From Rufibacter ruber (GTDB lineage Bacteria; Bacteroidota; Bacteroidia; Cytophagales; Hymenobacteraceae), in assembly GCF_001647275.1 (NCBI RefSeq), contig NZ_LRMM01000027.1, positions 1 through 63,826 of the forward strand: a DNA stretch of 63,826 nt. Direction: 5' to 3'. Positions 18,831 through 59,749 of this stretch are shown here, piece after piece. Below the pieces are notes generated by a model that ran no database searches, had not been told where the DNA came from, and saw nothing but the letters and a program-made list of their open reading frames with translations. The first letter of the stretch is position 1. Each line of letters opens with the position of its first letter. A program made the translations under genes and the position numbers.

Positions 18831-18871
18831 CTGTTTTTGGCCTGTTTTGGGGAAAAGAGGCTGGAAACGGG
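18831..18871. repeat. Palindromic unit
   Basis: CTGTTTTTGGCCTGTTTT, loop GGGG, then AAAAGAGGCTGGAAACGGG. It lies upstream of the amidotransferase gene, between it and the toxin gene. Confidence 0.7.
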
Positions 18872-18906
18872 AGGATAGAACGGTAAATGTTAATTACGGA
18901 TAGCTC

Positions 18907-19248
18907 CTACAAATCAAACAGGATTTTCAATTTCTTATCTATCTCTGTCTGTTGCATGGTTGAAAGAAAACCCAACTGCCTTTTGATTAAATTCTTCGGT
19001 ATGGTTACTATTTTGTGAAGCTTAATGACAGAATCAACAGAAAGCCCGGTGGGTTTAAAGTCTTTGCTTTTCTTCTCAATGAGTACGTCAGTTGGTTCAA
19101 GCGATGGCGGAAGTTGGCTACTGATAAAGGCAATCACCACATGGTTGTAAAAGCCGATTTCATTGGTCAGGCAGACGGCTGGTCGTACTTTGGCCCCGCT
19201 GAAATCATCAAACGGGAAAGGCACCAGTATGATTTTCCCTTTAGTCAT
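18907..19248 (-). CDS. MazF/PemK-type toxin endoribonuclease
   Basis: Toxin of a type II toxin-antitoxin pair, 113 residues. The N-terminus GKIILVPFPFDDFSGAKVRP is the classic MazF/PemK start, with the conserved RP (R20 P21) near the active site. VIAFISSQLP and the later DSVIKLHKIVTIPK fit the rest of the fold, so it should cut mRNA at specific sites when free of antitoxin. I start at ATG 19248, which overlaps the antitoxin stop by 8 bases. An upstream in-frame start would lie inside the antitoxin gene. Confidence 0.88.
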   Translation of the reverse strand: MTKGKIILVPFPFDDFSGAKVRPAVCLTNEIGFYNHVVIAFISSQLPPSLEPTDVLIEKKSKDFKPTGLSVDSVIKLHKIVTIPKNLIKRQLGFLSTMQQTEIDKKLKILFDL

Positions 19249-19474
19249 GGAACGGCTTGCCGTCGGTGAGTTTGTAGATATCCTCTTGCTCATCCTTCAG
19301 GAAATCAAACGCCGGATTACCGGCCATTGCCTTCAACCACAGCTTTTCCTCTTGCTCATCTTCATCAGACAGGAGAATAATCACCTTTACGTTTTTCTCC
19401 CTCATCAGCAAAGGATTGTCTAACAGCAGATTTCCTTTCTTATCTATTTTCCCCGTTACCTCAATCGCTCTCAT
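19241..19474 (-). CDS. Antitoxin partner of the MazF/PemK toxin
   Basis: Small acidic protein of 77 residues upstream of, and overlapping, the toxin gene. The N-terminus MRAIEVTGKIDKKGNLLLDN looks like a small AbrB/MazE-like strand-rich domain. The C-terminal half (LWLKAMAGNPAFDFLKDEQE) is acidic and hydrophobic and would bind and neutralise the toxin. The antitoxin-first order and 8-base overlap are typical of these modules. Autoregulation of its own promoter is expected from the family but no operator is evident. Confidence 0.8.
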   Translation of the reverse strand: MRAIEVTGKIDKKGNLLLDNPLLMREKNVKVIILLSDEDEQEEKLWLKAMAGNPAFDFLKDEQEDIYKLTDGKPFHD

Positions 19475-19550
19475 AGTTCTTTCCTTTTGTTTAAGATACG
19501 GAATTGGGGATGAAATATTTCATTCTTACTTCTTTGCAAGCTGAATGTTA

Positions 19551-19598
19551 TTTTCTGTTTCCGGGCTGTTTTAGCCAAAACAGCCCGGAAACAGAAAA
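19551..19598. repeat. Palindromic unit, perfect 22-bp arms
   Basis: 19551-19572 and 19577-19598 are exact reverse complements of 22 bases, separated by the loop AGCC. It lies two bases beyond the restored stop codon of cvpA and is the cleanest copy in the window. Confidence 0.97.
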
Positions 19599-19600
19599 CC

Positions 19601-20100
19601 TCAAGCAAAATTCTCCAACGCCTCTTTCCCGAAGGGAATTACCCATTGCACAAAGGCCCAGGCGTTGGCGCGGCATCTACAAAGAAGGGATACACGCTTG
19701 ACTCGCGGGTGGTCTGGAACATAGTATCTACGCCGGTAGAATGGGCGAAGTACACCAGCAGGCAGATGGCAAAGGCCCACTTCCCGCCGCCCACGGCCGC
19801 GCCCAGCAGGTTATCCATCATCCCGAAGGGCGTGAGGTGCACGGCTTTTTTCACCACCACGCCCATGGCGCGCACGGCAAACCCAATACCCACAAACACC
19901 AGCAGATAGGCTACAAATCCGGCCCCGGTGCCCAGCCATTCCTGCACGTACGGCGTGGCCAGGCTCACCAGCTTCACCCCGAAGACCGTGACCACCACCA
20001 GCGTCACCATAGACGCCAGCTCCAGCACCACCCCTCTGAAAAAGCCCCGGAAGGCCCCGTACGCCACCGGCAGCAGCAGGAAATAATCAAACGTGCTCAA
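19601..20100 (-). pseudogene. cvpA: CvpA-family membrane protein, C-terminus frameshifted
   Basis: Inner-membrane protein with four hydrophobic segments (about 5-25, 30-50, 60-85, 100-120), of the CvpA family linked to colicin V export and cell-envelope maintenance. As written the frame ends at 19639 after PGPLCNG. The other frame continues cleanly as NAWAFVQWVIPFGKEALENF to a TGA at 19601-19603. One extra G in the GG at 19667-19668 (a C on the coding strand) joins the two into 166 residues. It is 12 nt from yqeY, and a perfect palindromic unit starts right after the restored stop. A base-calling error is the likely cause. Confidence 0.8.
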
Positions 20101-20112
20101 TCTGGGAAAAAC

Positions 20113-20574: not shown

Positions 20575-20649
20575 AGTTTTAAAGTTATCCGCTCTGGTGA
20601 AAGAACGGCGGTGTGAAAATCATTTAGGCAAGTGCCGCGCAGTTTGTTT

Positions 20650-20657: not shown

Positions 20658-20708
20658 CCGAAGAACACGTTTATATTTCCCGTAGGAGAAACGTAAATCT
20701 TTTGCACC

Positions 20709-21430: not shown

Positions 21431-21475
21431 TTTTCTGTTTTCGGCCTGCTTTCTGAAAAAGAGCTCGAAAACGGA
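21431..21475. repeat. Palindromic unit
   Basis: TTTTCTGTTTTCGGCCTGCT, loop, then AAAAAGAGCTCGAAAACGG. It starts 5 bases after the pdxJ stop. Confidence 0.75.
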
Positions 21476-21520
21476 AGAGCCTGAAAAGCCTGTTATTTCC
21501 AAATGCACCTTCCCCCCTCC

Positions 21521-21662
21521 TGTCATTCTGGAAGAATCTTGTGGCAAACTAGAAAAGCAGTGGTTCTTCTCTATATACTTGTATAGTAGAGTGTTTTTAC
21601 CATTTTTAATGTGAAGAAATAACGCCTCTACAGTTCGCCCACAAGATTCTTCCAGAATGACA
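21521..21662. mobile_element. MITE-like element with perfect 23-bp terminal inverted repeats
   Basis: 21521-21543 (TGTCATTCTGGAAGAATCTT plus GTG) is the exact reverse complement of 21640-21662, with 96 bp between. There is no transposase or open frame. Related ends occur at 23434-23523, 23252-23277 and 24661-24684. Confidence 0.75.
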
Positions 21663-21778: not shown

Positions 21779-21819
21779 CTGTTTTTAACCTGTTTTCAGA
21801 AAAATAGCCCTAAAACGCA
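21779..21819. repeat. Palindromic unit
   Basis: CTGTTTTTAACCTGTTTTCA then GAAAAATAGCCCTAAAACGC; it directly precedes the start of the membrane-protein gene at 21826. Confidence 0.6.
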
Positions 21820-21825: not shown

Positions 21826-22404
21826 ATGCTAGGCATGCTGTTCAAGATAGCGGCTTTTGTGGTGGTGGCGCATTTTGTGGTGCGGTTCCTGCTGCGCGTG
21901 TTTAATCGGCAGGGCCGGGTGTATTTTTTAACGCCGGCGCGGCAGTTTAAGCTGGTGTTCTGGTCGTTGATTAGCTTTTGGCTGGCTTTAGTCATGTTCG
22001 GGTTGCTGCTGCGGGCGCACACAGACACGCACCTGGAGCGTATTTTGGCCATCGCCCTGGGCGGAATTTTGTTTTTGTTCTCCTTGCCCACCCTGCTGGT
22101 GCATTTCCAGTACTGGCGGCATGAGCGGGAAAGCGCGCTGGAGCTGGAGAAAGACACCAGAACCGCGCTGCTGCTACGGCCGGGGCAGAAGTTTCTGTTG
22201 CAGCAAAACCAAATCAGGAGCCTGCTGGAAACCCGCTGCTCGTCCAGAAGTTCTTTCTGGAGCAACTATACGTATCTTACCCTCACGCTGCAGGACGGAA
22301 GGGCAGTCACCATCACTTCACTCTTAATTGATTTGGAGCAGTTGAAGGCGCTTTGGCCGCAGGTGCCGCTGCAGACCAGAACGAAATGGGTCTGTTTTCT
22401 GTAA
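21826..22404 (+). CDS. Membrane protein of unknown function
   Basis: Protein of 192 residues that I cannot name. It has hydrophobic segments at about 4-24, 44-64 and 72-95. A soluble C-terminal half follows (about 110-192) with strand-rich sequence (YTYLTLTLQDGRAVTITSLL) that may form a PH-like domain. The start is ATG 21826; ATG 21835 is possible. The stop codon lies inside a short palindrome (22392-22411) related to the palindromic unit, so the last few residues (WVCFL) are encoded by repeat-like sequence. Confidence 0.65.
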   Translation: MLGMLFKIAAFVVVAHFVVRFLLRVFNRQGRVYFLTPARQFKLVFWSLISFWLALVMFGLLLRAHTDTHLERILAIALGGILFLFSLPTLLVHFQYWRHERESALELEKDTRTALLLRPGQKFLLQQNQIRSLLETRCSSRSSFWSNYTYLTLTLQDGRAVTITSLLIDLEQLKALWPQVPLQTRTKWVCFL

Positions 22405-22411
22405 AACAGGT
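22392..22411. repeat. Shortened palindromic unit at a gene end
   Basis: CTGTTTT, CTGT loop, AAAACAGG. It keeps only the inner arms of the family and overlaps the stop codon of the preceding gene. Confidence 0.45.
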
Positions 22412-22420
22412 CAGAAACGT

Positions 22421-23214: not shown

Positions 23215-23251
23215 GTCTGGCGGAAATTGAAAGCCATTTTCCCTCCACTTT

Positions 23252-23277
23252 TGTCATTCTGAAGGAACCTTGTGGGC
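23252..23277. repeat. MITE-like end, solo
   Basis: TGTCATTCTGAAGGAACCTT matches the terminal repeat of the element at 21521. No matching opposite end is found nearby. Confidence 0.5.
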
Positions 23278-23433
23278 AAACGGCAAAGGCGTTTCAACCC
23301 CTCCAGACTTGCTAAATCTGTTTTCAGGAACAGCTCTTTCCCCGCTTGTGTCCTTCTGTAAGGCCCTTGTAGCCGCACAGCCATAGCGTTTATTTAAGTA
23401 GTTTAGTTTATACCAGATGCCGTCCCCCTTTTT

Positions 23434-23523
23434 TGTCATTCTGGAAGAATCTTGGTTGCGAGCAAGAGAAGCGTTTTAAGTAGAGCTACTACCGCTCGCC
23501 CCCAAGATCCTTTCAGGATGACA
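23434..23523. mobile_element. Short MITE-like element
   Basis: 90-bp version of the element at 21521: TGTCATTCTGGAAGAATCTT at the left, and CCAAGATCCTTTCAGGATG then ACA at the right. The inverted repeats of 22 bp have about four mismatches. No coding sequence. Confidence 0.7.
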
Positions 23524-24389: not shown

Positions 24390-24433
24390 CTTTGCGTTTT
24401 AGGCCTGTTTTGGCCAAAACAGCGTACGCAAAG
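24390..24433. repeat. Palindromic unit
   Basis: CTTTGCGTTTTAGGCCTGTT and its partner; inner arms CTGTTTT/AAAACAG around GGCC, outer arms CTTTGCGT/ACGCAAAG pair exactly. Confidence 0.75.
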
Positions 24434-24549: not shown

Positions 24550-24590
24550 GCGTTTTGGGGCTATTTTCTGAAAAACAGGCTAAAAACAGG
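24550..24590. repeat. Palindromic unit
   Basis: GCGTTTTGGGGCTATTTT, loop CTGA, then AAAACAGGCTAAAAACAGG. Confidence 0.75.
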
Positions 24591-24727: not shown

Positions 24728-24765
24728 CTGTTTTCGGGCTGTTTTTCAGAAAACAGCGAAAACAG
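24728..24765. repeat. Palindromic unit
   Basis: CTGTTTTCGGGCTGTTTT, loop, then AAAACAGCGAAAACAG; it ends 6 bases beyond the stop codon of the EnvC-like gene. Confidence 0.85.
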
Positions 24766-24771
24766 AAATCA

Positions 24772-29630: not shown

Positions 29631-29713
29631 AGTAACGTTGAAATAAGGTTGAATTAGTATGGCCTCCTACGGGAATGCCAGATTTAAGATATAGTATAAA
29701 TACTATTTTTATC

Positions 29714-29742
29714 CTGTTTTCGAAAAAACAAGCCAAAAACAG
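29714..29742. repeat. Palindromic unit, left core deleted
   Basis: CTGTTTTCGAAAAAACAAGC then CAAAAACAG; the left GGGCTG is missing. It lies 5 bases beyond the dut stop. Confidence 0.6.
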
Positions 29743-31782: not shown

Positions 31783-31830
31783 CTATTCCCTTTTGCTGTT
31801 TTCTCAAAAACAGCCCAAAAACGGGAATAG
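31783..31830. repeat. Palindromic unit with paired outer arms
   Basis: CTATTCCC (31783-31790) and GGGAATAG (31823-31830) pair exactly; inside are CTGTTTT, a loop and AAAACAGCCCAAAAAC. The left GGGC core is missing. Confidence 0.75.
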
Positions 31831-33381: not shown

Positions 33382-33421
33382 CTGTTTCTGGGCTGTTTTC
33401 TGAAAAACAGCCCAGAAACAG
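33382..33421. repeat. Palindromic unit, perfect 18-bp arms
   Basis: CTGTTTCTGGGCTGTTTT (33382-33399), loop CTGA, AAAACAGCCCAGAAACAG (33404-33421): an exact 18-bp inverted repeat. Confidence 0.96.
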
Positions 33422-33423: not shown

Positions 33424-33786
33424 ATGAATGGTGTGCAAGAAGGAGCAGCCTTTCTGAGAGTGGCTAACCTTTGCGGTTTACAAACATTCCTGCTTCTGCT
33501 CAAGCGCTCAACCATGGTCAGTCGGCAGAAGCCTTCCTGTTTCCGGGCTGTTTTTCAAAAAGTAGGCCGAAAACAGGTTTTTGCATTTTACCCCTCCCTC
33601 TACATGATCCCCCAGATGGAGAGCCTGTTCAAAATTTGCCTTTTGAGCGGCAAGGGGCCATTACGCTTTCCCTGGCTTTGTAGCGCTGCTACGAAACTCT
33701 AAAACCGCAATAGAAGAACCCCACCTTAGCTGGCCTCACGCGTTTAACTTGTAAAGAAGCTCTCATCAGGATGCATAGAAAGCAGA
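33424..33786. other. Gene-free region before infB
   Basis: About 360 bp without a supportable gene; open frames here start inside repeats. It holds one palindromic unit (33537-33576). Confidence 0.6.
33537..33576. repeat. Palindromic unit
   Basis: CTGTTTCCGGGCTGTTTT then AAAAAGTAGGCCGAAAACAG: intact left arm, diverged right arm. Confidence 0.8.
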
Positions 33787-36438: not shown

Positions 36439-36813
36439 TTATTGATTGCGGCTCCGTTCATCCTTGATTTTGACCGTGGCGGCGCCGAAACCTGGGTTCC
36501 CATTATAGTGGGTGCTGTTATTTTACTGCAGAACCTCATGACAAACTGGGAAGTGGGCGTATTCAGAGCCATGTCTGCTAACATGCACTTGAACATGGAC
36601 TACCTGATTGGTATTTTCTTGGCGGCCTCACCCTGGATCTTTAATTTTGATGAGTATGTGTACCTGCCGCACCTGATTGTAGGTATTGTGATCCTGCTGC
36701 AGGCTATGATGACCCGTGTGGTTCCTGAGCATGGCGCTGTGACCAATGCCGGTCCTGCCAATGCCCGCCACCCCTACAGAGGGAGCAGCATGAACCATGG
36801 CCATACACACTAA
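36430..36813 (+). CDS. SPW-repeat membrane protein, 5' end missing
   Basis: C-terminal part of a small membrane protein with two SPW-type units. The first is truncated ([20 protein letters not shown]); the second is complete ([20 protein letters not shown]). Four hydrophobic segments remain. The residues that normally start these proteins (a short VHGxxDY segment with Met) are absent; in their place the frame runs into the antisense of the Ala/Pro-rich infB region. The homology begins at about 36436. The function of SPW proteins is unknown. It is followed by a good terminator, so the 3' end is intact. Confidence 0.8.
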
Positions 36814-38975: not shown

Positions 38976-39021
38976 TTTCTGTTTTGGAGCCGTTTTGGCT
39001 AAAACGGCTCCAAAACAGAAA
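38976..39021. repeat. Palindromic unit, perfect 21-bp arms with changed core
   Basis: 38976-38996 and 39001-39021 are exact reverse complements around GGCT. The core is GGAGCCG/CGGCTCC instead of GGGCTG/CAGCCC, changed on both sides so pairing is kept. Confidence 0.96.
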
Positions 39022-41414: not shown

Positions 41415-41454
41415 CTGTTTTTGGGCTGTTTTTCCAAAAATGGGCAAAAAACAG
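41415..41454. repeat. Palindromic unit at the CoA-transferase start
   Basis: CTGTTTTTGGGCTGTTTTTC and AAAAATGGGCAAAAAACAG. It covers the alternative start ATG at 41437. Confidence 0.8.
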
Positions 41455-44513: not shown

Positions 44514-46958
44514 CTATCTCACCATCAGCCTCTGGGTCTCGTTTACACCGCCGCCATTGATGGAGATCATGTAGACCCCGCTGCTCAACCCCAGGCCACT
44601 CAGGTTCAGTGTGCCGTCTGTGCTCAGCGTGGCAGTGTGCAGAACCCTTCCGCCCAGGTCAACCAGACGCACGCTCACCTCTCCTTTAGGCACCTCAGCA
44701 AAGCGGATGCTCACGTTACCGCTGGTCACTGGATTAGGGAACACGCTCACTTTAGCAGAGGCCCCTGCGTTGGCCACCCCTGCGTTATGCTTCACAGAGA
44801 TCACCTTTGAGTATTCCTGCGAGCCGTCCAGGTCTACCTGGCGCAGGCGGTAGTAAGCCGCACCACTTGTGGCGCCGTTGTCAGTAAAGGTGTAGTCAAT
44901 CACTACGCTGGTGTTACCTGAGCCTTTCACTTCGCCAATCTTCACGAAATCCTTACCGTTCAGGCTGCGCTCCACCTCAAAGCGGTCGTTGTTGATCTCA
45001 GTGGCCGTGGTCCAGGACAGCTCCACCGTTCCGTTTCTTGACACACCGTCAAATCTTGTGAGTGATACCGGCAGTGGGGTACCAGCGCCACACTCACTCA
45101 CCACCACTGTAGCTTCTGCCGTTGCGGTGCCGCACTCGCTGGTGGCCACCACCCTTACCGTCTGCGGTTGACCCAACTGCTCTTCTTCAAACACAGCCAC
45201 CACCTCAACGTACCCATTGCCCTCTTCCACCGGAACGAAGCCCTCCGGTAGTTGGAACTCATAACTCACGCCCTCCTGCAGGTTGGCCACTTCAAAGCGG
45301 TACGTGTCATCAGAAAGGTTGCAAACAGAGTCAGGGGCCAGCAAAGAAACCTTAGGGGCGCCGGCAGGGCAAGGAGTTGGGTTACAGCCTTTAGGGTTGA
45401 AAGCAACTGCACCAATGGTTCCAGCAGCTTTCGCCTGTACTTTAATGGTAGTCAGTTTTGCAAACTCAGCAGCCGTCAACTCATAAGAGAAGGTGTCAGA
45501 GGTTCCGTTTTTATAACCTTCCGCCGCTTTGGCCTCAAATTTCACAGAGTAGAAAGGGTTGTTAGTGGTATTCTCTACCGTGTATTTAAAAGTAGTGGCT
45601 TGGGGATTTTTAGCTTTTGCCCCGGCCGGCAACTGGAAAGCAACGTTACTCAAGGCGTTCCCGCAGTTGGTGATCACCTCAAATACTATTTTCACATTTC
45701 CGTTAGGGAGGGTCACATACCCTTTGTAAATAAACTTGAAGCACTCATCTACTGACACGCAATCACCCTCACCTGGCTGTTCACCACCGTTGTCCTGTCC
45801 ACCGCAGTCAGGCAGTGGGCAAAGGGTTGGTTCAGCAGCAGTAGCGCAGGCTTTTACAGAAGAGGAAATGGTTGCCTGGTTTCTTACTTCATCTACGATC
45901 AAACTCGCAGACGCCTTGGTGAAGTCTAAAAAGCAAAGAGTGCCGGTGATAGTACCTTGATCAGTATTGGTTGAGGTGCCGTACACATGGAAAGTTCCTT
46001 TCCCTGTCACTTTGCCATGGGTGTTCTTGAAGTTACCTTTGATTTTGATGAAACCATCATTGGTCAGCTCAGAGATGCTGTTCATGTTATGGAACGTAAA
46101 ACCAGCGGTTGACTGCTCTATATACCCACAAGCGTAGTTGAAGATACTGCCGTTGCTTTCAATATTTTTATGGCTGTAGATGCGGCCCCAGTTTTTGATA
46201 GAAGCTTGTGAATTCACATAAATCCTATCTGAGGTTACTGATCCATAATTCAGCAAAAGGTTTGGCTTTCCCACGCTTACCCCGCTGGGGAAGTTCAGAC
46301 GGCCGGCAATCTTCACCGTTCCGCAGTTGTAGAAATAACCAGTGTTAATGTTCAAAGCGTCATCTGCAGTAGCCTTTACTTCAAATAAACCTTTATTATA
46401 GACAGTGGCTCCTGAATTCAAATGCACACTGTTGGAGAACACCATGTTCTTGTTGTTTTTCAAGGTGATTCTTTCAAACGCCTCTGGACTGCCCAAGGCC
46501 AGGGTCATGTCGCCGTTATTGATCACAGACCCTTTCTTGAAGAATACATTTCCCTGCACTTTTACAGTACCGTTGTTTACAAAGTAGGCAGAGTCATTGC
46601 TGTTGATCCCAAAGTCAAGGTTGGTCAGCTCCATTACTCCGTTCACGGTCACGGCCGACATGTTATTAAGCACCAACAATTTTCCTGAGCCCTTCAAAGA
46701 CCCGTTCTGGTTGATCAACAACTCCCCTTTGCCATCTTTACCAACCCAAACTTCCTGATTGATGTTCACGGCGTGGTTGATGACAATTTTCTCACAGGAA
46801 GAGGGCACTCTGCCTTTGTCCCAGATAGAACGGTCAGAGAAGTTTCCAGCTTTCACTGAAGTGATGATTTCACCGCATTTGGCTGCAAAAGCCTGCTGGG
46901 TAATCCCGAAAAGTATAAGCAATAGGGTACAACCCCATGAATGTAAAGTTTTTTTCAT
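44514..46958 (-). CDS. Secreted T9SS cargo protein with N-terminal beta-helix-like region
   Basis: Protein of 814 residues from ATG 46958 (MKKTLHSWGCTLLLILFGIT); an upstream in-frame extension is not needed and lacks a better signal. The signal peptide ends at AFA (about 25). Residues about 35-380 are built of short strand-like units (VNGVMELTNLDFGINSNDSA) that look like a right-handed beta-helix. Then comes a Cys-rich linker, a domain shared with the neighbouring cargo, and the C-terminal type A sorting domain (VSVFPNPVTSGNVSIRFAEV...ETQRLMVR). It is a paralogue of the gene at 41641 by shared signal sequence, leader and C-terminal third. Confidence 0.87.
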   Translation of the reverse strand: MKKTLHSWGCTLLLILFGITQQAFAAKCGEIITSVKAGNFSDRSIWDKGRVPSSCEKIVINHAVNINQEVWVGKDGKGELLINQNGSLKGSGKLLVLNNMSAVTVNGVMELTNLDFGINSNDSAYFVNNGTVKVQGNVFFKKGSVINNGDMTLALGSPEAFERITLKNNKNMVFSNSVHLNSGATVYNKGLFEVKATADDALNINTGYFYNCGTVKIAGRLNFPSGVSVGKPNLLLNYGSVTSDRIYVNSQASIKNWGRIYSHKNIESNGSIFNYACGYIEQSTAGFTFHNMNSISELTNDGFIKIKGNFKNTHGKVTGKGTFHVYGTSTNTDQGTITGTLCFLDFTKASASLIVDEVRNQATISSSVKACATAAEPTLCPLPDCGGQDNGGEQPGEGDCVSVDECFKFIYKGYVTLPNGNVKIVFEVITNCGNALSNVAFQLPAGAKAKNPQATTFKYTVENTTNNPFYSVKFEAKAAEGYKNGTSDTFSYELTAAEFAKLTTIKVQAKAAGTIGAVAFNPKGCNPTPCPAGAPKVSLLAPDSVCNLSDDTYRFEVANLQEGVSYEFQLPEGFVPVEEGNGYVEVVAVFEEEQLGQPQTVRVVATSECGTATAEATVVVSECGAGTPLPVSLTRFDGVSRNGTVELSWTTATEINNDRFEVERSLNGKDFVKIGEVKGSGNTSVVIDYTFTDNGATSGAAYYRLRQVDLDGSQEYSKVISVKHNAGVANAGASAKVSVFPNPVTSGNVSIRFAEVPKGEVSVRLVDLGGRVLHTATLSTDGTLNLSGLGLSSGVYMISINGGGVNETQRLMVR

Positions 46959-47634
46959 GGCAATAGGAGGAAAGAAGGTTTTTGTATTTCTACTAAAGAA
47001 TTGGCGTTTCAAACACGGCTACCGCGTGCATGTGGAGAGCAAAAGTCTAAAAAGGATAAACTTGAAAGGCAGTGGCTACCGCTTTAGGCTCATCAGAAAG
47101 AGAAAGTACAGCTTTTTTCATATTTCACAGTTTTACTCAGATTAGACATCACAACAACATTCTATTTTATTGTTATAAACTGTCTAACGGCCACGCCCTA
47201 CACCTGTTTCACACAATTGCACTTTCACCTAATGTCACAAACACATTCCTTTATAAATACAATATTATTAGATATATAATCGCTAAAAACCGCATTTCAT
47301 CCTATATACCACTATATACATATGTAATTTTTCTAGGCAATCCCCTTTTTCAACCTATTGCAAACAGCTAGTAAAACCATCACAGCAATGCAATTTATTT
47401 CACCTCAACCTAACATCAGGAAATGACCCTCCCCCACTTCCGTAGCCTCCGCAGGATCAGCCATTTATCAGCCTTCGCCTACCAGAAAAGACTCATAAGG
47501 CACTTCCAGCTTACGGGTAAGCCCACTGACTTTTCACTAAGGAGAAATGGTCTCACCGGAAAAAGCTATATTTACAGACTTTACATGACCGCCTGCGGTA
47601 AAACTTGAATGCAGGCAACCATTGAATCAATACT
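46959..47634. other. Long AT-rich leader of the second T9SS cargo gene
   Basis: Gene-free region between the divergent T9SS cargo and helicase genes. The left part shares blocks with the leader at 43969-44454 (CAATAGGA next to the start; TTCTATTTTATTGTTATA near 47160; ATTGCACTTTCA near 47215). The right part should hold the helicase promoter. Open frames at 47072 and 47423 have no coding character. Confidence 0.6.
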
Positions 47635-49140: not shown

Positions 49141-49170
49141 CAGAAGGCCTCCCGTTGGGGAGGCCTTCTG
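49141..49170 (+). terminator. Terminator after the helicase gene
   Basis: CAGAAGGCCTCCC GTTG GGGAGGCCTTCTG followed by TTTTT. The T-run is shared with the left arm of the palindromic unit that follows. Confidence 0.95.
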
Positions 49171-49205
49171 TTTTTGGGCTACTTTTAGAAAAACAGGCCG
49201 AAGAC
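49168..49205. repeat. Palindromic unit fused to a terminator
   Basis: CTGTTTTTGGGCTACTTTTA then AAAAACAGGCCGAAGACG; its first three bases are the last of the terminator stem. Confidence 0.7.
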
Positions 49206-49220
49206 GCACTTTCTATCAGG

Positions 49221-50162
49221 TTAAGCTCTATCCAGCAGCAACCCAATGCCCAGCAGCAGCACAAACAGCAGCGTGCTCATGGCCATCTGCTTCAGGAGCG
49301 GGTCCAGTTCAGCGGGTGTCTGCCTGCGTTTCACCTCACGGCCATTGTACAGCAGCATGGGCAAAGACCCCAAAAACAGCCACGGCCAAAGCGTGTGGTT
49401 TTCCCGCACCAGCACAAACACCGCCGCACAGACAATACCGCCCAGCAGCAGGAGCCAATGGTAATTTCTGGCCCGCAGGGCGCCCAACCGCACCGGCACC
49501 GACCTTTTCCCGGCCAGTTCATCTGATTTGATGTCTCTGATGTTGTTCACGTTCAAAACCGCCGCCGAGAATAAACCAAGGCTGGAAGCGGGCAGCAGAA
49601 GTTCAGAGAAAATGCGCTCTGTTTGCAGAAAGTACGTTCCCAGCACTCCTACCCACCCGAAGAAGAAGAACACCGAGATATCGCCCAATCCGGCGTAGCC
49701 GTACGGTTTGCCACCGTTGGTGTAGCCAATGGCCGCCCAGATAGCGCCAATGCCCAACAGCAGGAAGAAGAGAAACAGGTACAAACCTGAGGATCCCAGC
49801 GCTACCCAGAGCAAGGCCACCCCTGAAAACAGAGACAGCAAGCTGAAGACAATAATCGCCGCCTTCATCTGGCCCGGCGTTATCTGCCCCGCCTGCACGG
49901 CCCGTTTGGGACCCTCACGGTGTTGGCTGTCGGCGCCGTGCCTGGTATCACCGTAGTCATTGGCCAGGTTGGAGAGAATCTGCAGGAACAGCGTAGTCAG
50001 CACGCAGAGCAGCAGCACCGGCCACCGTGATAGGTGGTCGGCGGCGGCCAGGAAACCGCCCATGCCAATGCAAGACAAAGAAAGGGGCAGCGTGCGTAAC
50101 CGGAAAGCCGATACCCACGTGCCCGCACTAGGCCGTTTCTGGCCTGTTTTTTCCAAATCCAC
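49221..50162 (-). CDS. menA: 1,4-dihydroxy-2-naphthoate polyprenyltransferase
   Basis: Inner-membrane UbiA-family prenyltransferase of 313 residues that attaches the polyprenyl tail in menaquinone synthesis. It has about eight to nine hydrophobic segments. NLANDYGDTRHGAD (about 66-79) and NVNNIRDIKSDELAGKR (about 206-222) are the two Asp-rich motifs that bind the Mg-diphosphate. Translation starts with GTG at 50162, and residues 2-10 (DLEKTGQKR) are encoded by a half palindromic unit. It lies 6 nt downstream of the glutathione peroxidase gene. No other men genes are in the window. Confidence 0.93.
   Translation of the reverse strand: MDLEKTGQKRPSAGTWVSAFRLRTLPLSLSCIGMGGFLAAADHLSRWPVLLLCVLTTLFLQILSNLANDYGDTRHGADSQHREGPKRAVQAGQITPGQMKAAIIVFSLLSLFSGVALLWVALGSSGLYLFLFFLLLGIGAIWAAIGYTNGGKPYGYAGLGDISVFFFFGWVGVLGTYFLQTERIFSELLLPASSLGLFSAAVLNVNNIRDIKSDELAGKRSVPVRLGALRARNYHWLLLLGGIVCAAVFVLVRENHTLWPWLFLGSLPMLLYNGREVKRRQTPAELDPLLKQMAMSTLLFVLLLGIGLLLDRA
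50133..50160. repeat. Half palindromic unit inside the menA start
   Basis: CCGTTTCTGGCCTGTTTTTT and CCAAATCC match the left arm and loop of the family; the right arm is absent. It overlaps the first codons of menA. Confidence 0.65.
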
Positions 50163-50168
50163 GTAAAA

Positions 50169-50759
50169 CTAGAGGTTAATGTCGCGCAGCAGTTCTTCGC
50201 TCAGCGGAGTCACTTTTGAGGGATAGAACTTCAGGATTTTGCCGTCTTCTGAAATCAGGTATTTGCTGAAGTTCCAGGCCGGGGCTTCGGCGGTCACGCC
50301 GTTCAGGTCTTTGTTGGTGAGCCACTTGTAGAGCGGCTGCTGTTCAGCGCCAATCACAGATGCCTTCTGGAACAGCGGGAACGTCACCCCGAAGTTCTTC
50401 TGGCAGAACTCGGCAATATCTTCGTCTGAGCCCGGCTCCTGCCCGCCAAAGTCGTTGGCCGGGAACCCCAGCACCACCACCTTGTCGCCGTGCAGCTTGT
50501 GCAGTTTCTCCAGGTCAGCGTACTGCTTGGTGTAGCCGCATTTGGAGGCCACGTTCACAATCAGGATTTTCTTGCCTTTGTACGGTTTGAGGGTGGTCTT
50601 TTTCCCCTCGTTGGTCACCAGTTCAATGTCATAGATAGAAGAAGCCGCGGTTGATTCCATAGCAGTCGTTTTTTGGGTTTTCACCTCCTGGGTAGACGCC
50701 ACCGGCGTAGAACAGGCCAGCAGAAGGCTTAAGGAGAGAAGGCTTAATACTTGTTGCAT
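50169..50759 (-). CDS. Glutathione peroxidase-family thiol peroxidase, lipoprotein
   Basis: Peroxidase of 196 residues that reduces peroxides with thiol donors (in most bacteria, thioredoxin rather than glutathione). Start at ATG 50759 (MQQVLSLLSLSLLLACSTPV); the lipobox LLAC gives a lipidated cysteine at about residue 16, so the enzyme is probably attached to the outer or inner membrane facing the periplasm. VASKCGYTKQYADLEKL (about 74-90) contains the peroxidatic cysteine; WNFSKYLI is the conserved Trp segment. The open frame extends upstream through a palindromic unit to 50897 and is spurious there. Confidence 0.9.
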   Translation of the reverse strand: MQQVLSLLSLSLLLACSTPVASTQEVKTQKTTAMESTAASSIYDIELVTNEGKKTTLKPYKGKKILIVNVASKCGYTKQYADLEKLHKLHGDKVVVLGFPANDFGGQEPGSDEDIAEFCQKNFGVTFPLFQKASVIGAEQQPLYKWLTNKDLNGVTAEAPAWNFSKYLISEDGKILKFYPSKVTPLSEELLRDINL

Positions 50760-50827: not shown

Positions 50828-50873
50828 TTTCCGTTTCCGGGCTGTTTTGGCAAAAACAGCCCGGAAACAGGAA
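50828..50873. repeat. Palindromic unit, near-perfect
   Basis: TTTCCGTTTCCGGGCTGTTT plus T, loop GGCA, then AAAACAGCCCGGAAACAGGA plus AA; a single mismatch in 21 pairs. It begins one base past the argS stop (50875). Confidence 0.95.
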
Positions 50874-50874: not shown

Positions 50875-52671
50875 CTACATTCTCTCCGGCACGGCAATGC
50901 CCAACAGCCCCATCATGCGCTTGATGGTTTGCGCCACTTGGCGGGAAAGCGCTATTCTAAAGCTCAGTTTCTGCGCGTTGGTTTCTTGAAAAATTGGTAC
51001 CTCAGTGTAGAAACGGTTGTAGGCTTTGGCCATGTCAAAGGCATACTGCGCAATAATGCTCGGTGCGAAGTTGCGGGCGGCATCGGCAATGGTGGCCTCG
51101 GCGTAGTTCAGGAGCACCAGCACCTCGCGCTCCGTCTCATGCAAATCGGTTACGCCTTCAAACGCCGAGGTCTCTGACTGAATCCCCATTTCGGCCGCTT
51201 TCCGCTGAATGGCGGCGATACGGGCGTGCGTGTACTGCACAAACGGACCGGTGTTGCCGTGGAACTCGATAGACTCCTCGGGGTTGAACAGCATGCGCTT
51301 CTTGGGGTCTACCTTGAGCAGGAAGTACTTGAGCGCGCCCATGGCGAGGGTGTGGTACAGTTGCTGCGCCTCCTCGGGGGTGAAGCCGTCAATCTTGCCC
51401 AGTTCATCGGTTTTTTGGCGGGCGGTGTCTATCATTTCCTGCACCAGCTCATCGGCGTCTACCACCGTTCCCTCGCGGGATTTCATCTTGCCGCTGGGCA
51501 GGTCCACCATGCCGTAAGAAAGGTGCACAATGCCATCGGCGTACGGTTTCTGCAGCTTTTTCAAGACTGCTTTCAGTACCTGGAAATGGTAATTCTGCTC
51601 ATCGGCCACCACGTACAGCGACTGGTCGTAGCCAAAGTCTTCGTACTTTAGTTCGGCGGTACCGAGGTCTTGGGTGATGTACACTGAGGTACCGTCTGCC
51701 CGGAGCAACAGTTTCTCGTCCAGACCTTCCTCCGTGAGGTCTACCCACACCGAACCGTCTGGCTTTTTGAAGAACACGCCTTTGGCGAGGCCTTCGTCTA
51801 CGCGGTCTTTGCCCAATAAATAGGTGTTTGACTCATAGTAGAACTTGTCAAAGTCAACGCCAATGTTTGTGTAGGTAGCATTGAAGCCGTCATACACCCA
51901 TCCGTTCATTTTCTGCCACAGGGCGATGGTTTCAGAATCGCCTTGCTCCCATTTCTGGAGCATTTCCTGGGCTTCCAGCATGAGCGGCGCCTGTTTTTTG
52001 GCTTGCTCTTTGTCAACGCCCTGCGCTACCAGCTGGTCAATCTCTGCTTTATAGGCTTTGTCAAACTCCACGTAGTACTTGCCCACCAGATGGTCGCCTT
52101 TGATACCCGCGCTTTCGGGCGTTTCGCCCTGTCCGAACTTCTCATAGGCAATCATGGACTTGCAAATGTGAATGCCGCGGTCGTTCACCAGGTTGGCTTT
52201 CACCACGTCATTGCCGGCGGCTTTCAGAATCTCGGCTACCGAATACCCCAAAAAGTTATTCCGCAGGTGACCCAGGTGCAGCGGTTTGTTCGTGTTGGGC
52301 GAAGAATATTCTACCACCACTTTCTGTTTCTGGCCTGTTTTTGCCAAATCAGCGCCAAACTGGCTTACCTGCTCAGCGAACAGCTGCAGCCACACGCTGT
52401 CTTTGATTTCAATGTTTAGGAAACCTTTCACTACGTTGTAGCCAGCCACCTGCGGCGCGTGCTGCACCAGAGAATCGCCCAGCGCCTGCCCTATCTGCTC
52501 GGGCCCTTTGCCCAAGGCTTTGGTGAACGGGAACGTGACAAACGTAAACGTGCCGGCAAATTCCTTGCGGGTAGGCTGCAGGTTGATTTGCTCAGCGGGA
52601 AAAGCGTGTTGGAAAGTATCTTGCAGCGCCTGGCTCAGCGCCTGGGCTATCTGTGCTTCTAATTGTTTCAT
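50875..52671 (-). CDS. argS: Arginyl-tRNA synthetase
   Basis: Class I synthetase of 598 residues that charges tRNA-Arg. The N-terminal domain is about 1-100; the catalytic core starts VVVEYSSPNTNKPLHLGHLR (about 118-137), where HLGH is the HIGH motif. SGKMKSREGTVV is the KMSKS-like segment; the C-terminal DALR anticodon domain ends KRMMGLLGIAVPERM. The linker before the core (about 105-117, GADLAKTGQKQK) is encoded by a palindromic unit inserted in frame. The reading frame is otherwise normal. Another palindromic unit follows the stop by one base. Confidence 0.97.
   Translation of the reverse strand: MKQLEAQIAQALSQALQDTFQHAFPAEQINLQPTRKEFAGTFTFVTFPFTKALGKGPEQIGQALGDSLVQHAPQVAGYNVVKGFLNIEIKDSVWLQLFAEQVSQFGADLAKTGQKQKVVVEYSSPNTNKPLHLGHLRNNFLGYSVAEILKAAGNDVVKANLVNDRGIHICKSMIAYEKFGQGETPESAGIKGDHLVGKYYVEFDKAYKAEIDQLVAQGVDKEQAKKQAPLMLEAQEMLQKWEQGDSETIALWQKMNGWVYDGFNATYTNIGVDFDKFYYESNTYLLGKDRVDEGLAKGVFFKKPDGSVWVDLTEEGLDEKLLLRADGTSVYITQDLGTAELKYEDFGYDQSLYVVADEQNYHFQVLKAVLKKLQKPYADGIVHLSYGMVDLPSGKMKSREGTVVDADELVQEMIDTARQKTDELGKIDGFTPEEAQQLYHTLAMGALKYFLLKVDPKKRMLFNPEESIEFHGNTGPFVQYTHARIAAIQRKAAEMGIQSETSAFEGVTDLHETEREVLVLLNYAEATIADAARNFAPSIIAQYAFDMAKAYNRFYTEVPIFQETNAQKLSFRIALSRQVAQTIKRMMGLLGIAVPERM
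52320..52362. repeat. Palindromic unit inside argS
   Basis: TTTCTGTTTCTGGCCTGTTT plus TT and TGCC loop; right half AAATCAGCGCCAAACTGG is diverged. It encodes about 13 residues in the argS linker without breaking the frame. Confidence 0.7.
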
Positions 52672-55490: not shown

Positions 55491-55530
55491 CTGTTTTGGG
55501 GCTGTTTTTCTGAAAACAAGCCAAAAACAG
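55491..55530. repeat. Palindromic unit
   Basis: CTGTTTTGGGGCTGTTTTTC, then GAAAACAAGCCAAAAACAG. Confidence 0.8.
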
Positions 55531-55716: not shown

Positions 55717-55756
55717 CTGTTTTGGGGCTGTTTTCCCAAAAACAAGCCGAAAACAG
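55717..55756. repeat. Palindromic unit
   Basis: CTGTTTTGGGGCTGTTTTCC, then AAAAACAAGCCGAAAACAG. It lies 21 bases after the HAD phosphatase stop. Confidence 0.8.
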
Positions 55757-56347: not shown

Positions 56348-56387
56348 CTGTTTTTGGGCTATTTTCTCTAAAACAGCTTCAAAACAG
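56348..56387. repeat. Palindromic unit
   Basis: CTGTTTTTGGGCTATTTTCT, then AAAACAGCTTCAAAACAG. It lies between the divergent phosphatase and oxidase genes. Confidence 0.75.
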
Positions 56388-57766: not shown

Positions 57767-57774
57767 TATATTTG
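57767..57774 (+). promoter_or_regulatory. -7 box of the glycosyltransferase gene (leaderless arrangement)
   Basis: TATATTTG fits TAnnTTTG and lies exactly 4 nt before the ATG at 57779, inside the short gap after the oxidase gene. Confidence 0.55.
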
Positions 57775-57778
57775 GGGA

Positions 57779-58510
57779 ATGAAAGAATCGGTGGTGGTCA
57801 TCCCGACCTATAATGAAATAGAGAATATCCAGGCGATTATCCGCAAGGTCTTTTCGTTGCCACACCCTTTCCATGTCCTGATCATAGATGACAATTCACC
57901 AGACGGCACAGCTGAGGCCGTAGAGCGCCTGCAGGCTGAGTTTCCGGAGCAGCTGTTCCTGGAGCGGCGCAAGGGAAAGCTGGGACTGGGCACCGCCTAT
58001 ATTCACGGGTTCAAATATGCCCTGCGCAACGGTTACCGGTATATCTTTGAAATGGATGCTGATTTCTCCCACAACCCTGAGGACCTCCTGCACCTGTACC
58101 ACGCCTGCGCCATTGACGGGTATGACTTGGCCATTGGCAGCCGTTACAGCAACGGGGTCAACGTGGTGAACTGGCCTATGAGCCGGGTGCTGCTCTCTTA
58201 CTTTGCCAGCAAATACGTGCGGTTCATTACGGGTATGCCTATTCATGACGCCACTGCCGGTTTCAAGTGTTACAGAAGCCATGTACTGGAGACCATCAAC
58301 CTGGACCGCATCCGGTTTATTGGGTACGCCTTCCAGATTGAGATGAAGTTTCTCACTTATAAGTTTGGGTTTAAGATCAAAGAGGTGCCTATCATCTTTA
58401 CTGACCGTGCCAAAGGGCAGTCAAAAATGAGCAAAGGCATTATCAAGGAAGCCTTTCTGGGGGTGATTCAGATGAAGCTGAGCAGCATGTTCAGAAGCTT
58501 CTCCCGTTAA
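57779..58510 (+). CDS. Polyprenol-phosphate mannosyltransferase-like GT2 glycosyltransferase
   Basis: Family 2 glycosyltransferase of 243 residues. VVVIPTYNEIENIQAIIRKV (about 5-24) is the nucleotide-binding N-terminus; DDNSPDGTAEAVERL (about 40-54) and MDADFSHNPEDL (about 92-103) carry the metal-binding Asp residues. It has no membrane segments, as in the short dolichyl/polyprenyl-phosphate mannose synthases (DPM1 type). It would transfer a sugar from GDP-mannose, or a similar donor, to a lipid carrier. It has its own leaderless-type promoter despite the short gap after the oxidase gene. Confidence 0.88.
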   Translation: MKESVVVIPTYNEIENIQAIIRKVFSLPHPFHVLIIDDNSPDGTAEAVERLQAEFPEQLFLERRKGKLGLGTAYIHGFKYALRNGYRYIFEMDADFSHNPEDLLHLYHACAIDGYDLAIGSRYSNGVNVVNWPMSRVLLSYFASKYVRFITGMPIHDATAGFKCYRSHVLETINLDRIRFIGYAFQIEMKFLTYKFGFKIKEVPIIFTDRAKGQSKMSKGIIKEAFLGVIQMKLSSMFRSFSR

Positions 58511-58520
58511 AGGGCGGTTT

Positions 58521-58560
58521 CTGTTTTGGAGCTGTTTTTGTGAAAACAGGCCAAAAACAG
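58521..58560. repeat. Palindromic unit
   Basis: CTGTTTTGGAGCTGTTTTTG, then GAAAACAGGCCAAAAACAG; it starts 10 bases after the glycosyltransferase stop. Confidence 0.85.
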
Positions 58561-58705
58561 CCCACCTCGGCTTCTCTTCTGCTATGGTTTTGCCAGCCAG
58601 AAGCTGTATCTTTCGGTTTTGTAACCTAACGGCCCGCCCAACTCAACACCTGGGTTTAACTCACACCTTGTTCAGAGGGCGGGGCCGAAGTAAAACCGAA
58701 GACTT

Positions 58706-59659
58706 GTGAATACAGATATCATCTTTTGGGTAGCCTTTAATGTTTTTGTCCTGGTTCTGCTGGCACTGGACCTATTTGTGTTTCACCGGAAAAGCCACGT
58801 GGTCAAGATAAAGGAGGCACTGCTCTGGAGTGCTTTCTGGATTGCCCTTTCGCTGGCGTTCAATGTGGGCATCTACTTCTGGAAAGGCAGCACCCCTGCC
58901 CTTGAGTTCTTAACCGCCTACCTGATAGAGAAGTCACTGAGCGTAGACAATCTGTTTGTATTCATTCTCATCTTCAATTACTTTAAGGTGCCTTCTGCCG
59001 TGCAGCACAAGATTCTCTTCTGGGGGGTGTTGGGGGCGCTGTTTTTCAGGGCTGTCTTTATTCTGGTGGGCGTGACACTCATAGCCAAGTTCCACTTTAT
59101 TATTTACATTCTGGGCGGCTTCCTGGTCTTTACCGGCGTACGCATGGCCTTCAGCAAAAGTGATGATGATATTGACCCGGAGGCCAACCCCGTGGTCAAA
59201 TTTGTGAGCCGGTACGTGCCGGTCACCAACAAGCAGTACGGTGACAAGTTCTTCGTCAAAATTGACAAGACCCGGTTTGCCACACCGCTTTTTCTGGTGC
59301 TCATTATGGTAGAGACCACAGATATTGTCTTTGCAGCAGATTCTATCCCGGCCATTCTGGCTATCTCCAAAGATCCGTTTATTGTTTACACCTCAAACGT
59401 ATTCGCGTTGCTGGGTTTACGGGCGCTTTACTTTGCGCTGGCGGGAATTATGCAGCTGTTCCACTATCTGCACTACGGTCTGTCCCTGATATTGGTATTC
59501 ATTGGTATGAAGCTGGTGCTCTCAGATATTTACCACCTGGACATGCGCATTGCGCTGGGTGTGGTAGCCTTTATCCTGGCTGTCTCTGTGATTCTCTCAC
59601 TTGTTTTCCCCAAGAAAGATAAACCTGAAATGCCTTTCCCTGAGGAGGTGGAAGAGTAA
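58706..59659 (+). CDS. TerC-family integral membrane protein
   Basis: Integral membrane protein of 317 residues with about eight or nine hydrophobic segments. LALDLFVFHRKSHVVKIKEA (near 20-40), YLIEKSLSVDNLFVFILIF (about 72-90) and VMVETTDIVFAADSIPAIL-like sequence around 200 are TerC signatures, with conserved acidic residues in the membrane. The family is linked to tellurite resistance and, in several bacteria, to manganese export or to metal loading of exported proteins. Translation starts with GTG at 58706. Here it stands alone, so the metal-export reading is the likelier one. Confidence 0.9.
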   Translation: MNTDIIFWVAFNVFVLVLLALDLFVFHRKSHVVKIKEALLWSAFWIALSLAFNVGIYFWKGSTPALEFLTAYLIEKSLSVDNLFVFILIFNYFKVPSAVQHKILFWGVLGALFFRAVFILVGVTLIAKFHFIIYILGGFLVFTGVRMAFSKSDDDIDPEANPVVKFVSRYVPVTNKQYGDKFFVKIDKTRFATPLFLVLIMVETTDIVFAADSIPAILAISKDPFIVYTSNVFALLGLRALYFALAGIMQLFHYLHYGLSLILVFIGMKLVLSDIYHLDMRIALGVVAFILAVSVILSLVFPKKDKPEMPFPEEVEE

Positions 59660-59709
59660 CAGTTTCTACTTCTTCTCTATGATTGTAGGCAAGGGTTGTT
59701 GCCCTGGTT

Positions 59710-59749
59710 CTGTTTTAGGCCTGTTTTTCAGAAATCAGCCCCAAAACAG
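59710..59749. repeat. Palindromic unit
   Basis: CTGTTTTAGGCCTGTTTTTC, then GAAATCAGCCCCAAAACAG; it lies between the TerC and transglycosylase genes. Confidence 0.8.

What the first reader, a model, noticed from the sequence alone, without database searches (positions are those of the whole stretch)
18831..59749. A dense family of 40-48 bp intergenic palindromes (about 27 copies in 64 kb)
Seen: about 27 sites share CTGTTTYYGGGCTGTTTT, about 4 loop bases, and the complement. Intact or near-intact copies lie at 19551, 33382, 38976, 50828, 24728, 55491 and 58521; decayed or half copies at 13, 7408, 7606, 16684 and 29714. Copies average about one per 1.6 kb from 16 kb to 60 kb, but are nearly absent from the exbB-tonB-bamA block and the T9SS cargo block. 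Known: REP-type palindromes in proteobacteria are spread by RAYT transposases and bind gyrase, IHF or RNases. Inference: this is a separate REP-like family for this lineage, with its mobilising enzyme elsewhere in the genome.
Basis: partly seen in the sequence, partly recalled or inferred. Interest (0 to 1): 0.75.

Follow-up and report, generated by a model that had tools for sequence, protein, structure and literature searches.

The report
Conserved intergenic DNA palindromes of Rufibacter
Rufibacter genomes carry roughly two thousand copies of a 40-base DNA palindrome between genes, kept at the same places from species to species while its spelling shifts across the whole genome in some species, which looks more like a DNA site under selection than a jumping repeat or an RNA signal.

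Summary
In detail: 26 copies in the window, against almost none in shuffles. The unit is CTGTTTTnGGSCTGTTTT-NNNN-complement: four 7-base half-sites 11 bases apart within each arm. A 400-kb sample extrapolates to about 2,600 copies in this genome. All 16 Rufibacter genomes searched have it; 6 of 134 other family members have 1-3 places.

It resembles REP elements: extragenic, biased to gene 3' ends and convergent gaps. A RAYT as its mobiliser is not supported: no GTAG/CGTC tag, 17 RAYT genes lie no nearer to palindromes than other genes, and 6 of those 17 carry a different hairpin. One RAYT of this genome does sit in a palindrome cluster.

Three results point to a DNA-level site under selection: copies are retained between species (1 of 127 absent, against 127 of 1,070 other intergenic 40-mers); A/T-tract cores diverge 2.5-fold more slowly than flanking A/T tracts; and G.U and A.C mismatches are equal in the transcript sense (606 vs 596), so RNA-level selection is not seen. 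Species have 'dialects': none of 53 G012 copies keeps the inner CTG found in 173 of 184 copies here. The binding protein and the way dialects spread are unknown; a topology role is inference.

The parts
7407..7446 (.). decayed palindrome (9 of 18 arm pairs)
   Evidence: score 24/34
7587..7626 (.). decayed palindrome (12 of 18 pairs)
   Evidence: score 29/34
16683..16722 (.). decayed palindrome (10 of 18 pairs)
   Evidence: score 26/34; none seen at this gap in 7 relatives
18831..18870 (.). palindrome (13 of 18 pairs)
   Evidence: score 30/34
19555..19594 (.). perfect palindrome (18 of 18 pairs)
   Evidence: score 32/34; RNA fold -35.3 kcal/mol
21435..21474 (.). palindrome (13 of 18 pairs); a copy at the same place just after the stop codon in 10 of 10 relatives
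   Evidence: score 30/34
21779..21818 (.). palindrome (11 of 18 pairs); second copy in a gap where 10 of 10 relatives have one
   Evidence: score 29/34
22381..22420 (.). weak match at a gene end (11 of 18 pairs); matrix score only 12
   Evidence: score 24/34
24394..24433 (.). decayed palindrome (8 of 18 pairs)
   Evidence: score 26/34
24550..24589 (.). palindrome (12 of 18 pairs)
   Evidence: score 30/34
24728..24767 (.). palindrome with a 2-base shorter right arm (12 of 18 pairs in register)
   Evidence: score 29/34
29703..29742 (.). palindrome (14 of 18 pairs); match at the same gap in 9 of 10 relatives
   Evidence: score 30/34
31785..31824 (.). palindrome with a damaged left arm here (10 of 18 pairs); present in 10 of 10 relatives, where arms and outer stem co-vary
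   Evidence: score 26/34
33382..33421 (.). perfect palindrome (18 of 18 pairs) in a convergent gap; 0 to 4 copies in relatives
   Evidence: score 32/34
33537..33576 (.). palindrome (14 of 18 pairs), same convergent gap
   Evidence: score 31/34
38979..39018 (.). perfect palindrome (18 of 18 pairs) in a convergent gap; 1 to 2 copies in the 9 relatives with the same adjacent pair
   Evidence: score 30/34
41415..41454 (.). palindrome (14 of 18 pairs); match in 9 of 9 relatives next to a start codon, right arm conserved
   Evidence: score 31/34
49168..49207 (.). palindrome (11 of 18 pairs) whose left arm is also the T-rich arm of a terminator-like hairpin
   Evidence: score 29/34
50133..50172 (.). 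decayed palindrome (8 of 18 pairs)
   Evidence: score 25/34
50831..50870 (.). palindrome (17 of 18 pairs)
   Evidence: score 31/34
52324..52363 (.). decayed match inside a coding region (arginyl-tRNA synthetase)
   Evidence: score 28/34
55491..55530 (.). palindrome (15 of 18 pairs) in a convergent gap; 1 to 2 copies in 7 of 7 relatives with the same gap
   Evidence: score 33/34
55717..55756 (.). palindrome (15 of 18 pairs), same gap
   Evidence: score 33/34
56348..56387 (.). palindrome (14 of 18 pairs)
   Evidence: score 31/34
58521..58560 (.). palindrome (15 of 18 pairs), 10 bases after a stop codon
   Evidence: score 33/34
59710..59749 (.). palindrome (15 of 18 pairs)
   Evidence: score 33/34

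Best explanation
A genus-wide family of double-stranded DNA sites at the ends of transcription units, REP-like in form and place. Shown here: each unit is two inverted arms, each arm two CTGTTTT-type half-sites 11 bases apart, with a 4-base centre; units sit between genes, mostly near 3' ends and in convergent gaps; they are kept at the same positions between species; their A/T-tract cores are under purifying selection; their mismatches carry no sign of RNA-level selection; and some species have their own spelling at most copies. Inferred: a dimeric or tetrameric DNA-binding protein reads the phased A/T tracts, as a nucleoid or topology factor would (E. coli REP/BIME units that bind gyrase or IHF at 3' ends are the recalled analogue), and acts where positive supercoils meet, between convergent genes.
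For: Retention: 1 of 127 copies absent against 127 of 1,070 non-palindrome intergenic 40-mers, Fisher p 6e-6 (G003/G014), and 0 of 33 against 37 of 256, p 0.012 (G006/G013). Without alignment, 99 of 106 orthologous gaps agree on having or lacking a palindrome. Constraint: A/T-tract cores differ at 91/1471 positions (0.062), against 335/2170 (0.154) in AAA/TTT runs of the flanks and 0.210 at other arm positions; second pair 0.086 against 0.190. DNA rather than RNA: G.U 606 and A.C 596 mismatched pairs in the transcript sense, tandem context, 13 genomes, p 0.80. Placement over 7 Rufibacter genomes: palindromes in 137/161 convergent, 371/691 tandem and 71/177 divergent gaps of 60 bases or more (summed). 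Pairing: 722 of 762 half-sites lie in palindromes, the 40 solo ones being close to the 29 expected by chance; 4-base spacing in 324 inverted pairs, next commonest spacing 7. Dialects: GCTCATTT in 25/37 G012 copies, 1/185 here, 0 in 11 other genomes sampled; 0 of 53 G012 copies keep the inner CTG, 173 of 184 here have it.
Against: No binding protein is known and no binding was tested. 43 of 395 copies here are perfect palindromes where one shuffle of partners gave 1, and they fall into 15 arm types led by one with 14 copies, which looks like recent spread of whole units. At site 31785 the pairing itself, including outer bases not in the family consensus, is maintained across 10 species (13 pairs with double changes against 5.2 in shuffles, 0/500), which plain half-site recognition does not need; site 21435 shows little of this, 55491 some, the window copies none. 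The 'present' copies include 12 of 128 aligned at under 50% identity, and one of 33, so retention may be somewhat overstated. One search counts each species pair in both directions, so its p value is too small. The elements of G003/G014 are partly decayed and lose pairs more often than they gain them (81 against 45). A gyrase or topology role rests on placement and analogy only.
Confidence: 0.45

Rival explanations
1. A non-autonomous mobile palindrome of REP type, spread by an unidentified enzyme, without a host function; most copies are old and a younger perfect subfamily is recent.
For: Perfect copies with identical 40-base units in unrelated flanks (43 of 395, 14 sharing one arm); symmetric variation at the unconstrained base 7 (z 9.3); copy number varies in some gaps (0 to 4 at 33382); single units in 6 genomes of another genus, two of them in a convergent gap with no detected Rufibacter-like flank beyond the element.
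Against: Almost no gain or loss between species; core constraint; no palindrome-sized gap in 12,448 repeat alignments within this genome. At least one of the isolated copies elsewhere lies in what looks like a gene-cassette array (array recognised from memory), so it may have travelled with other DNA.
Confidence: 0.22
2. A classical REP/RAYT system: the genome's RAYT transposases copy the palindrome.
For: Three RAYT genes over the cut-off in this genome; 15 of 16 Rufibacter genomes have one over the cut-off; one RAYT here lies among 8 palindromes within 1.3 kb; the published Bacteroidetes RAYT subclass 2.6 is said to be flanked by untagged atypical structures (PMC6006769, passages).
Against: 17 RAYT loci are no closer to palindromes than control genes: within 350 bp on either side 0.65 against 0.72 (RAYT distances were taken from the profile match, not the gene ends, which biases the shorter limits against RAYTs). 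A different hairpin, GGCACG...CGCGCC, lies 44-165 bp from 6 of 17 Rufibacter RAYTs and beside 3 of 13 RAYTs of other genera, one of those an irregular form. RAYTs occur in genera without the palindrome. G006 has palindromes at normal density without a RAYT over the cut-off. 11 of 17 RAYT loci had neither-side hairpin by the strict pattern, so the hairpin's link is itself partial.
Confidence: 0.12
3. An RNA hairpin at mRNA 3' ends: a terminator or a stabiliser against exonucleases.
For: Perfect copies fold strongly as RNA (-30 to -35 kcal/mol for 4 copies); many lie just after stop codons; in G006 and G013, 18 of 204 sides adjoin a hairpin against 2 of 204 further out, and some arms double as terminator arms; pairing is maintained at 31785.
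Against: No G.U excess over A.C in transcript sense, even within 60 bases of the stop (338 against 301, p 0.15). No T-run follows the element: outward flanks are A-rich on the 3' side. Intrinsic terminators are found at 0.20-0.39 of 3' ends in Rufibacter and 0.18-0.24 in four genomes of other genera without palindromes, so they are not replaced (crude detector, reverse-strand controls 0.06-0.17). At some sites the palindrome lies beyond the terminator.
Confidence: 0.1
4. A DNA-uptake-type signal whose spelling is driven genome-wide by biased uptake and recombination, as with Neisseriaceae DUS dialects.
For: Species dialects affecting most copies at shared positions; DUS also occur as inverted pairs at terminators and in dialects (PMC3630211, passages).
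Against: Single half-elements are not enriched: 40 solo against 29 by chance, only 10 in coding sequence, whereas DUS work singly and are common inside genes (passage). No competence data were examined.
Confidence: 0.08

Closest known systems
REP / BIME elements of proteobacteria (GTAG and CGTC super-families)
   Same: Short palindromes, high copy, intergenic, mainly between convergent and tandem genes and close to 3' ends (PMC3733652, abstract and section 15 read).
   Different: No GTAG/CGTC foot, near-perfect symmetry, 11-base modular arms, no preferential RAYT neighbour, positions shared between species, species dialects.
Atypical structures flanking RAYT subclass 2.6 (group 5) of Bacteroidetes
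   Same: Same phylum, untagged, copies elsewhere in the genome; the Rufibacter RAYTs carry the published NH[LIV]H / WQ / YIH[QN]NP-like motifs in part (PMC6006769, passages; alignment).
   Different: The hairpin seen beside 6 of 17 Rufibacter RAYTs is GGCACG...CGCGCC, a different sequence present 13 times in 862 kb of this genome. I did not see the published structures themselves.
DNA uptake sequence dialects of Neisseriaceae
   Same: Thousands-scale short motif with species-wide spelling changes, often as inverted pairs near terminators (PMC3630211, passages).
   Different: Here single half-elements are not enriched and copies are almost only intergenic.
BIME-type gyrase or IHF binding sites at transcription-unit ends
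   Same: Placement at 3' ends; phased A/T tracts (role recalled; the gyrase and IHF papers were seen only as reference-list entries).
   Different: No protein binding shown here.

Membership tests
REP elements | 20-40 bp palindrome in high copy number | tested here: met
   40-bp unit, 188 copies in 400 kb sampled blind, 0 in a shuffle
REP elements | Extragenic, mostly between convergent or tandem genes near 3' ends | tested here: met
   Of 209 copies 7 coding, 8 at stretch edges, 55 convergent (35.4 expected by length), 121 tandem (128.6), 18 divergent (29.9)
REP elements | Unpaired GTAG or CGTC tag at one foot | tested here: not met
   Symmetric CTG...CAG feet; flanks show only a T/A bias over 3 bases. 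The published untagged RAYT subclasses mean this excludes the two tagged super-families, not every REP-like kind
REP elements | RAYT gene flanked by the same palindrome | tested here: not met
   17 loci against 152 control genes: no enrichment; one exception, contig C100
REP elements | Mobility: presence/absence with clean edges | tested here: inconclusive
   1 absence in 129 and 0 in 33; no empty site found in the other genus (50 genomes); closest pair only about 86-87% identical, so recent events could be missed
Intrinsic terminator | GC-rich hairpin followed by a T-run | tested here: not met
   3' flank is A-rich, not T-rich; a minority of arms overlap a separate terminator
RNA structural element | G.U tolerated over A.C in the transcript sense | tested here: not met
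   606 against 596, p 0.80
DNA uptake sequence | Single copies enriched, also inside genes | tested here: not met
   40 solo half-sites against 29 by chance; 10 coding
DNA uptake sequence | Promotes uptake of own DNA | not testable with these tools
   needs a transformation assay
DNA-binding site of a nucleoid or topology protein | Specific binding by a named protein | not testable with these tools
   core constraint and placement are only indirect
MITE | Terminal inverted repeats with target-site duplication | not tested
   no empty site was found from which a duplication could be read

The most novel reading that the evidence does not exclude
Rufibacter has a chromosome-wide code of some two thousand duplex DNA sites at transcription-unit ends, read by an unknown protein, whose spelling changed at essentially all sites together in individual species: a genome-scale dialect switch of positionally fixed sites, outside natural-transformation signals.
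Probability: 0.33. Interest if true: 0.82.

Novelty: new variant of a known kind. Interest (0 to 1): 0.6.

Why it matters
REP-type repeats are usually explained as residues of RAYT transposition or as RNA signals. Here one of the densest such families can be tested across 16 species: positions stay, cores are constrained at the DNA level, and spelling moves in concert. If a protein reads it, this would open a new global chromosome-organising factor in Bacteroidota and a natural experiment in how thousands of sites and their reader change together. If it is mobile after all, it needs an enzyme other than the RAYTs, or shows that RAYT relationships are looser than thought.

Tried and rejected
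RAYT as mobiliser: rejected as main explanation, with the C100 cluster left unexplained. RNA terminator or stabiliser as main function: rejected by the mismatch test and terminator counts. A general attenuator-like arrangement (arm shared with a terminator) looked promising in G006/G013 but is a minority there and nearly absent in this genome and G012 (10 of 780 sides against 2; 0 of 108 against 0). Insertions of the palindrome inside other repeats of this genome: none (a first run returned nothing because of invalid alignment settings). Empty site in the other genus: the query matched 5 of 50 genomes, none with both flanks lacking the element. A second CTGTTTT-unit spacing of 15 (7 pairs) is mostly a register effect; 3 elements do seem to have one extra 11-base unit (by eye). 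Rfam: no match in the window or in three foreign loci. Papers: Rufibacter with palindrom, REP with Bacteroidetes and RAYT, intergenic palindromic repeat with Cytophagales, Pontibacter with REP: no listed paper was about this family, judged from listings; PMC only, so absence from print is not shown. Limits of the comparisons: genes were called by a simple codon-score script of mine, not a standard gene finder; the first 400-kb sample was placed around known hits, the second blind by coordinate; A5 left out G005 and the second copy of this genome, A4 left out this genome's damaged copy.

Full report
OBSERVATION. The window holds 26 copies of a 40-base palindrome, with consensus CTGTTTTnGGSCTGTTTT, four bases, and the complement. 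Half-element matches number 36 against 0.30 in shuffles. The arms repeat a 7-base half-site at 11-base spacing, and TTT/AAA precede and follow the unit. Inverted half-sites are spaced by 4 bases in 324 pairs, the next commonest spacing (15) having 7 (the script failed after printing these lines).

EXTENT. In a 400-kb sample taken blind by coordinate I find 188 copies and 0 in a Markov shuffle, which extrapolates to about 2,590 in 5.50 Mb. Twelve other Rufibacter genomes have one per 1.4 to 3.0 kb in 32-100 kb samples, eight of which are the stretches matching the window rather than random ones; shuffles gave 0-2 hits. Samples of 400 kb from six genomes of other genera gave 0. Model searches found it in 15 of 15 other Rufibacter genomes, 1 of 9 same-family genomes of other genera and 0 of 14 genomes of other families of the order, then in 16 of 16 Rufibacter and 6 of 134 other family members, the six having 1-3 places each.

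PLACE. Of 209 copies in 462 kb, 7 overlap predicted coding sequence, 55 lie in convergent gaps (35.4 expected by length), 121 in tandem (128.6), 18 in divergent (29.9) and 8 at stretch edges. Summed over seven Rufibacter genomes, palindromes occupy 137/161 convergent, 371/691 tandem and 71/177 divergent gaps of 60 bases or more, and accompany 0.55-0.77 of gene 3' ends. This matches the published placement of REPs (PMC3733652, section 15).

NOT AN RNA SIGNAL IN THE MAIN. If a transcribed hairpin were selected, one-arm changes giving G.U should be tolerated over those giving A.C. In 13 genomes the counts in tandem gaps are 606 and 596 (p 0.80), and within 60 bases of the stop 338 and 301 (p 0.15). 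Intrinsic terminators are found at 0.20-0.39 of Rufibacter 3' ends and 0.18-0.24 in four palindrome-free genomes, with reverse-strand controls of 0.06-0.17; within Rufibacter they are commoner beside palindromes in six of seven genomes and equal in G006. So palindromes do not stand in for terminators. Perfect copies do fold well as RNA, and a minority share an arm with a terminator.

POSITIONS ARE KEPT. In the window's gaps, matches recur in 10 of 10 relatives at 21435 and 31785, 9 of 10 at 29703 and 9 of 9 at 41415, while 33382 varies from 0 to 4 and 16683 is absent from 7 of 7. For the closest pair with matched 220-kb stretches (G003/G014, 86% identical), 128 of 129 copies align to a partner, though 12 of the 128 at under 50% identity, and 99 of 106 gaps agree on presence. 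Against control 40-mers of the same gaps the absence rates are 1/127 and 127/1,070 (p 6e-6); for G006/G013 0/33 and 37/256 (p 0.012). Palindromes may attract the aligner, so I rely also on the alignment-free gap table.

CORES ARE CONSTRAINED. At orthologous copies the twelve A/T-core positions differ at 0.062, other arm positions at 0.210, flanks at 0.183, and A/T runs in flanks at 0.154 (both directions counted, so the p value of 1.7e-18 is too small). The second pair gives 0.086, 0.155, 0.248 and 0.190. In G003/G014 pairing itself is being lost (81 pairs broken, 45 gained, 10 double changes keeping the pair, 29 not). So in that clade the tracts, not the hairpin, are held.

DIALECTS. GCTCATTT marks 25 of 37 copies in G012, 1 of 185 here and 0 in 11 other genomes; GTTTAGGGGC marks 8 of 16 in G004, 0 of 185 here and 0-2 per genome elsewhere. 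No G012 copy of 53 retains the inner CTG; 48 have the TCA form in at least one arm; here 173 of 184 have CTG in at least one arm. At the window's own sites 14 of 15 G012 copies show TCA, counted by eye. In a single-gene tree without support values G012 sits beside G005, which suggests but does not prove a derived switch. Within-species identity of unrelated copies reaches 0.84 in G012 and 0.77 here, while orthologous copies at five clear palindrome sites (21435, 31785, 49168, 50831, 55491) average 0.65-0.74: concerted change at fixed places.

SIGNS OF SPREAD AND OF PAIRING. 43 of 395 copies here are perfect over 18 pairs, against 1 in a partner shuffle; bases 7 and 10 co-vary (z 9.3, 5.0) while most core positions do not. 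The perfect copies form 15 arm types, the first with 14 copies, as recent spread would give. At 31785 the arms and outer stem co-vary across 10 species: 13 doubly changed pairs against 5.2, none of 500 shuffles reaching it, 5 of them among the 8 outer pairs that are not part of the family consensus. Site 21435 shows little, 55491 some, and the window copies together none. Either the folded form matters at some sites or template switching mends quasi-palindromes there; I cannot tell.

RAYT. Three RAYT proteins of 182-183 aa and an IS200-type relative are encoded here. They fit the Bacteroidetes subclass 2.6 of PMC6006769 by motif (passages), whose flanking structures are described there as atypical. 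Palindromes are no nearer to 17 RAYT loci than to 152 control genes. Six of the 17 loci, and 3 of 13 in other genera (one irregular), carry an asymmetric hairpin GGCACG...CGCGCC within 44-165 bp in Rufibacter, inverted on the two sides where both are found. This is the likelier partner of those RAYTs. The third RAYT here (C100) lacks it and lies among 8 palindromes, which I cannot explain.

INTERPRETATION. A duplex DNA site, read through phased A/T tracts, placed at transcription-unit ends and kept by selection, fits the placement, retention, core constraint, mismatch parity and strict pairing together. Its reader and function are not shown. A mobile origin, and continued low-level spread of fresh units, is compatible and likely. 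Filing: REP-like in form and place, outside the tagged REP super-families, and not shown to be a RAYT system.

Noticed in passing
L106:9980-10612, L107:9944-10666 and other RAYT loci: A separate asymmetric hairpin family GGCACG(RRAGT..ACTYY)CGCGCC beside RAYT genes, 13 copies in 862 kb of this genome and also in other genera; probably the RAYTs' own REP.
   Followed up: partly
window 39115-39269; L120:7914-8082: A repeat of about 165 bp with ends TTAGAGCnTGTTTA...TAAACAAGCTCTAA, MITE-like, about 25 matches to one copy in 862 kb of this genome.
   Followed up: partly
window 21512-21541, 23243-23272, 23340-23369, 23425-23454: Four copies of a 30-base repeat around GTCATTCTGGAAGAATCTTG.
   Followed up: no
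window about 36435-36533: Blocks on either side lie on different contigs or more than 1 Mb apart in the 15 relatives, and 99 bases equal the end of contig C6 of the same assembly: a rearrangement or an assembly misjoin.
   Followed up: no
window 41641-43968 and 44514-47012: Two neighbouring similar genes (73-76% DNA identity in long segments); the first encodes PKD-like domains and a T9SS C-terminal sorting tail.
   Followed up: no
L249, L247, L250 (another genus of the family): Isolated palindromes next to short repeats that also match G003/G014 loci; in L249 the sequence recalls integron attC sites (recognised from memory only).
   Followed up: partly
L150 (viral contig collection): One exact palindrome in a 39-kb contig of the viral collection, perhaps a provirus or host DNA.
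   Followed up: no
L153, L231-L233 and other G006/G013 loci: Recurring arrangement in which the palindrome's right arm is also the 5' arm of an intrinsic terminator (AAAAGAGCCCG...CGGGCTCTTTT), giving two exclusive pairings.
   Followed up: partly
L191:15218, L195:4208, L200:16746: Elements with what looks like one extra 11-base unit (three T-tracts, then two A-tracts).
   Followed up: no
L105:9058-11445 (contig C100): Eight palindromes around one RAYT gene, far denser than the genome average.
   Followed up: partly
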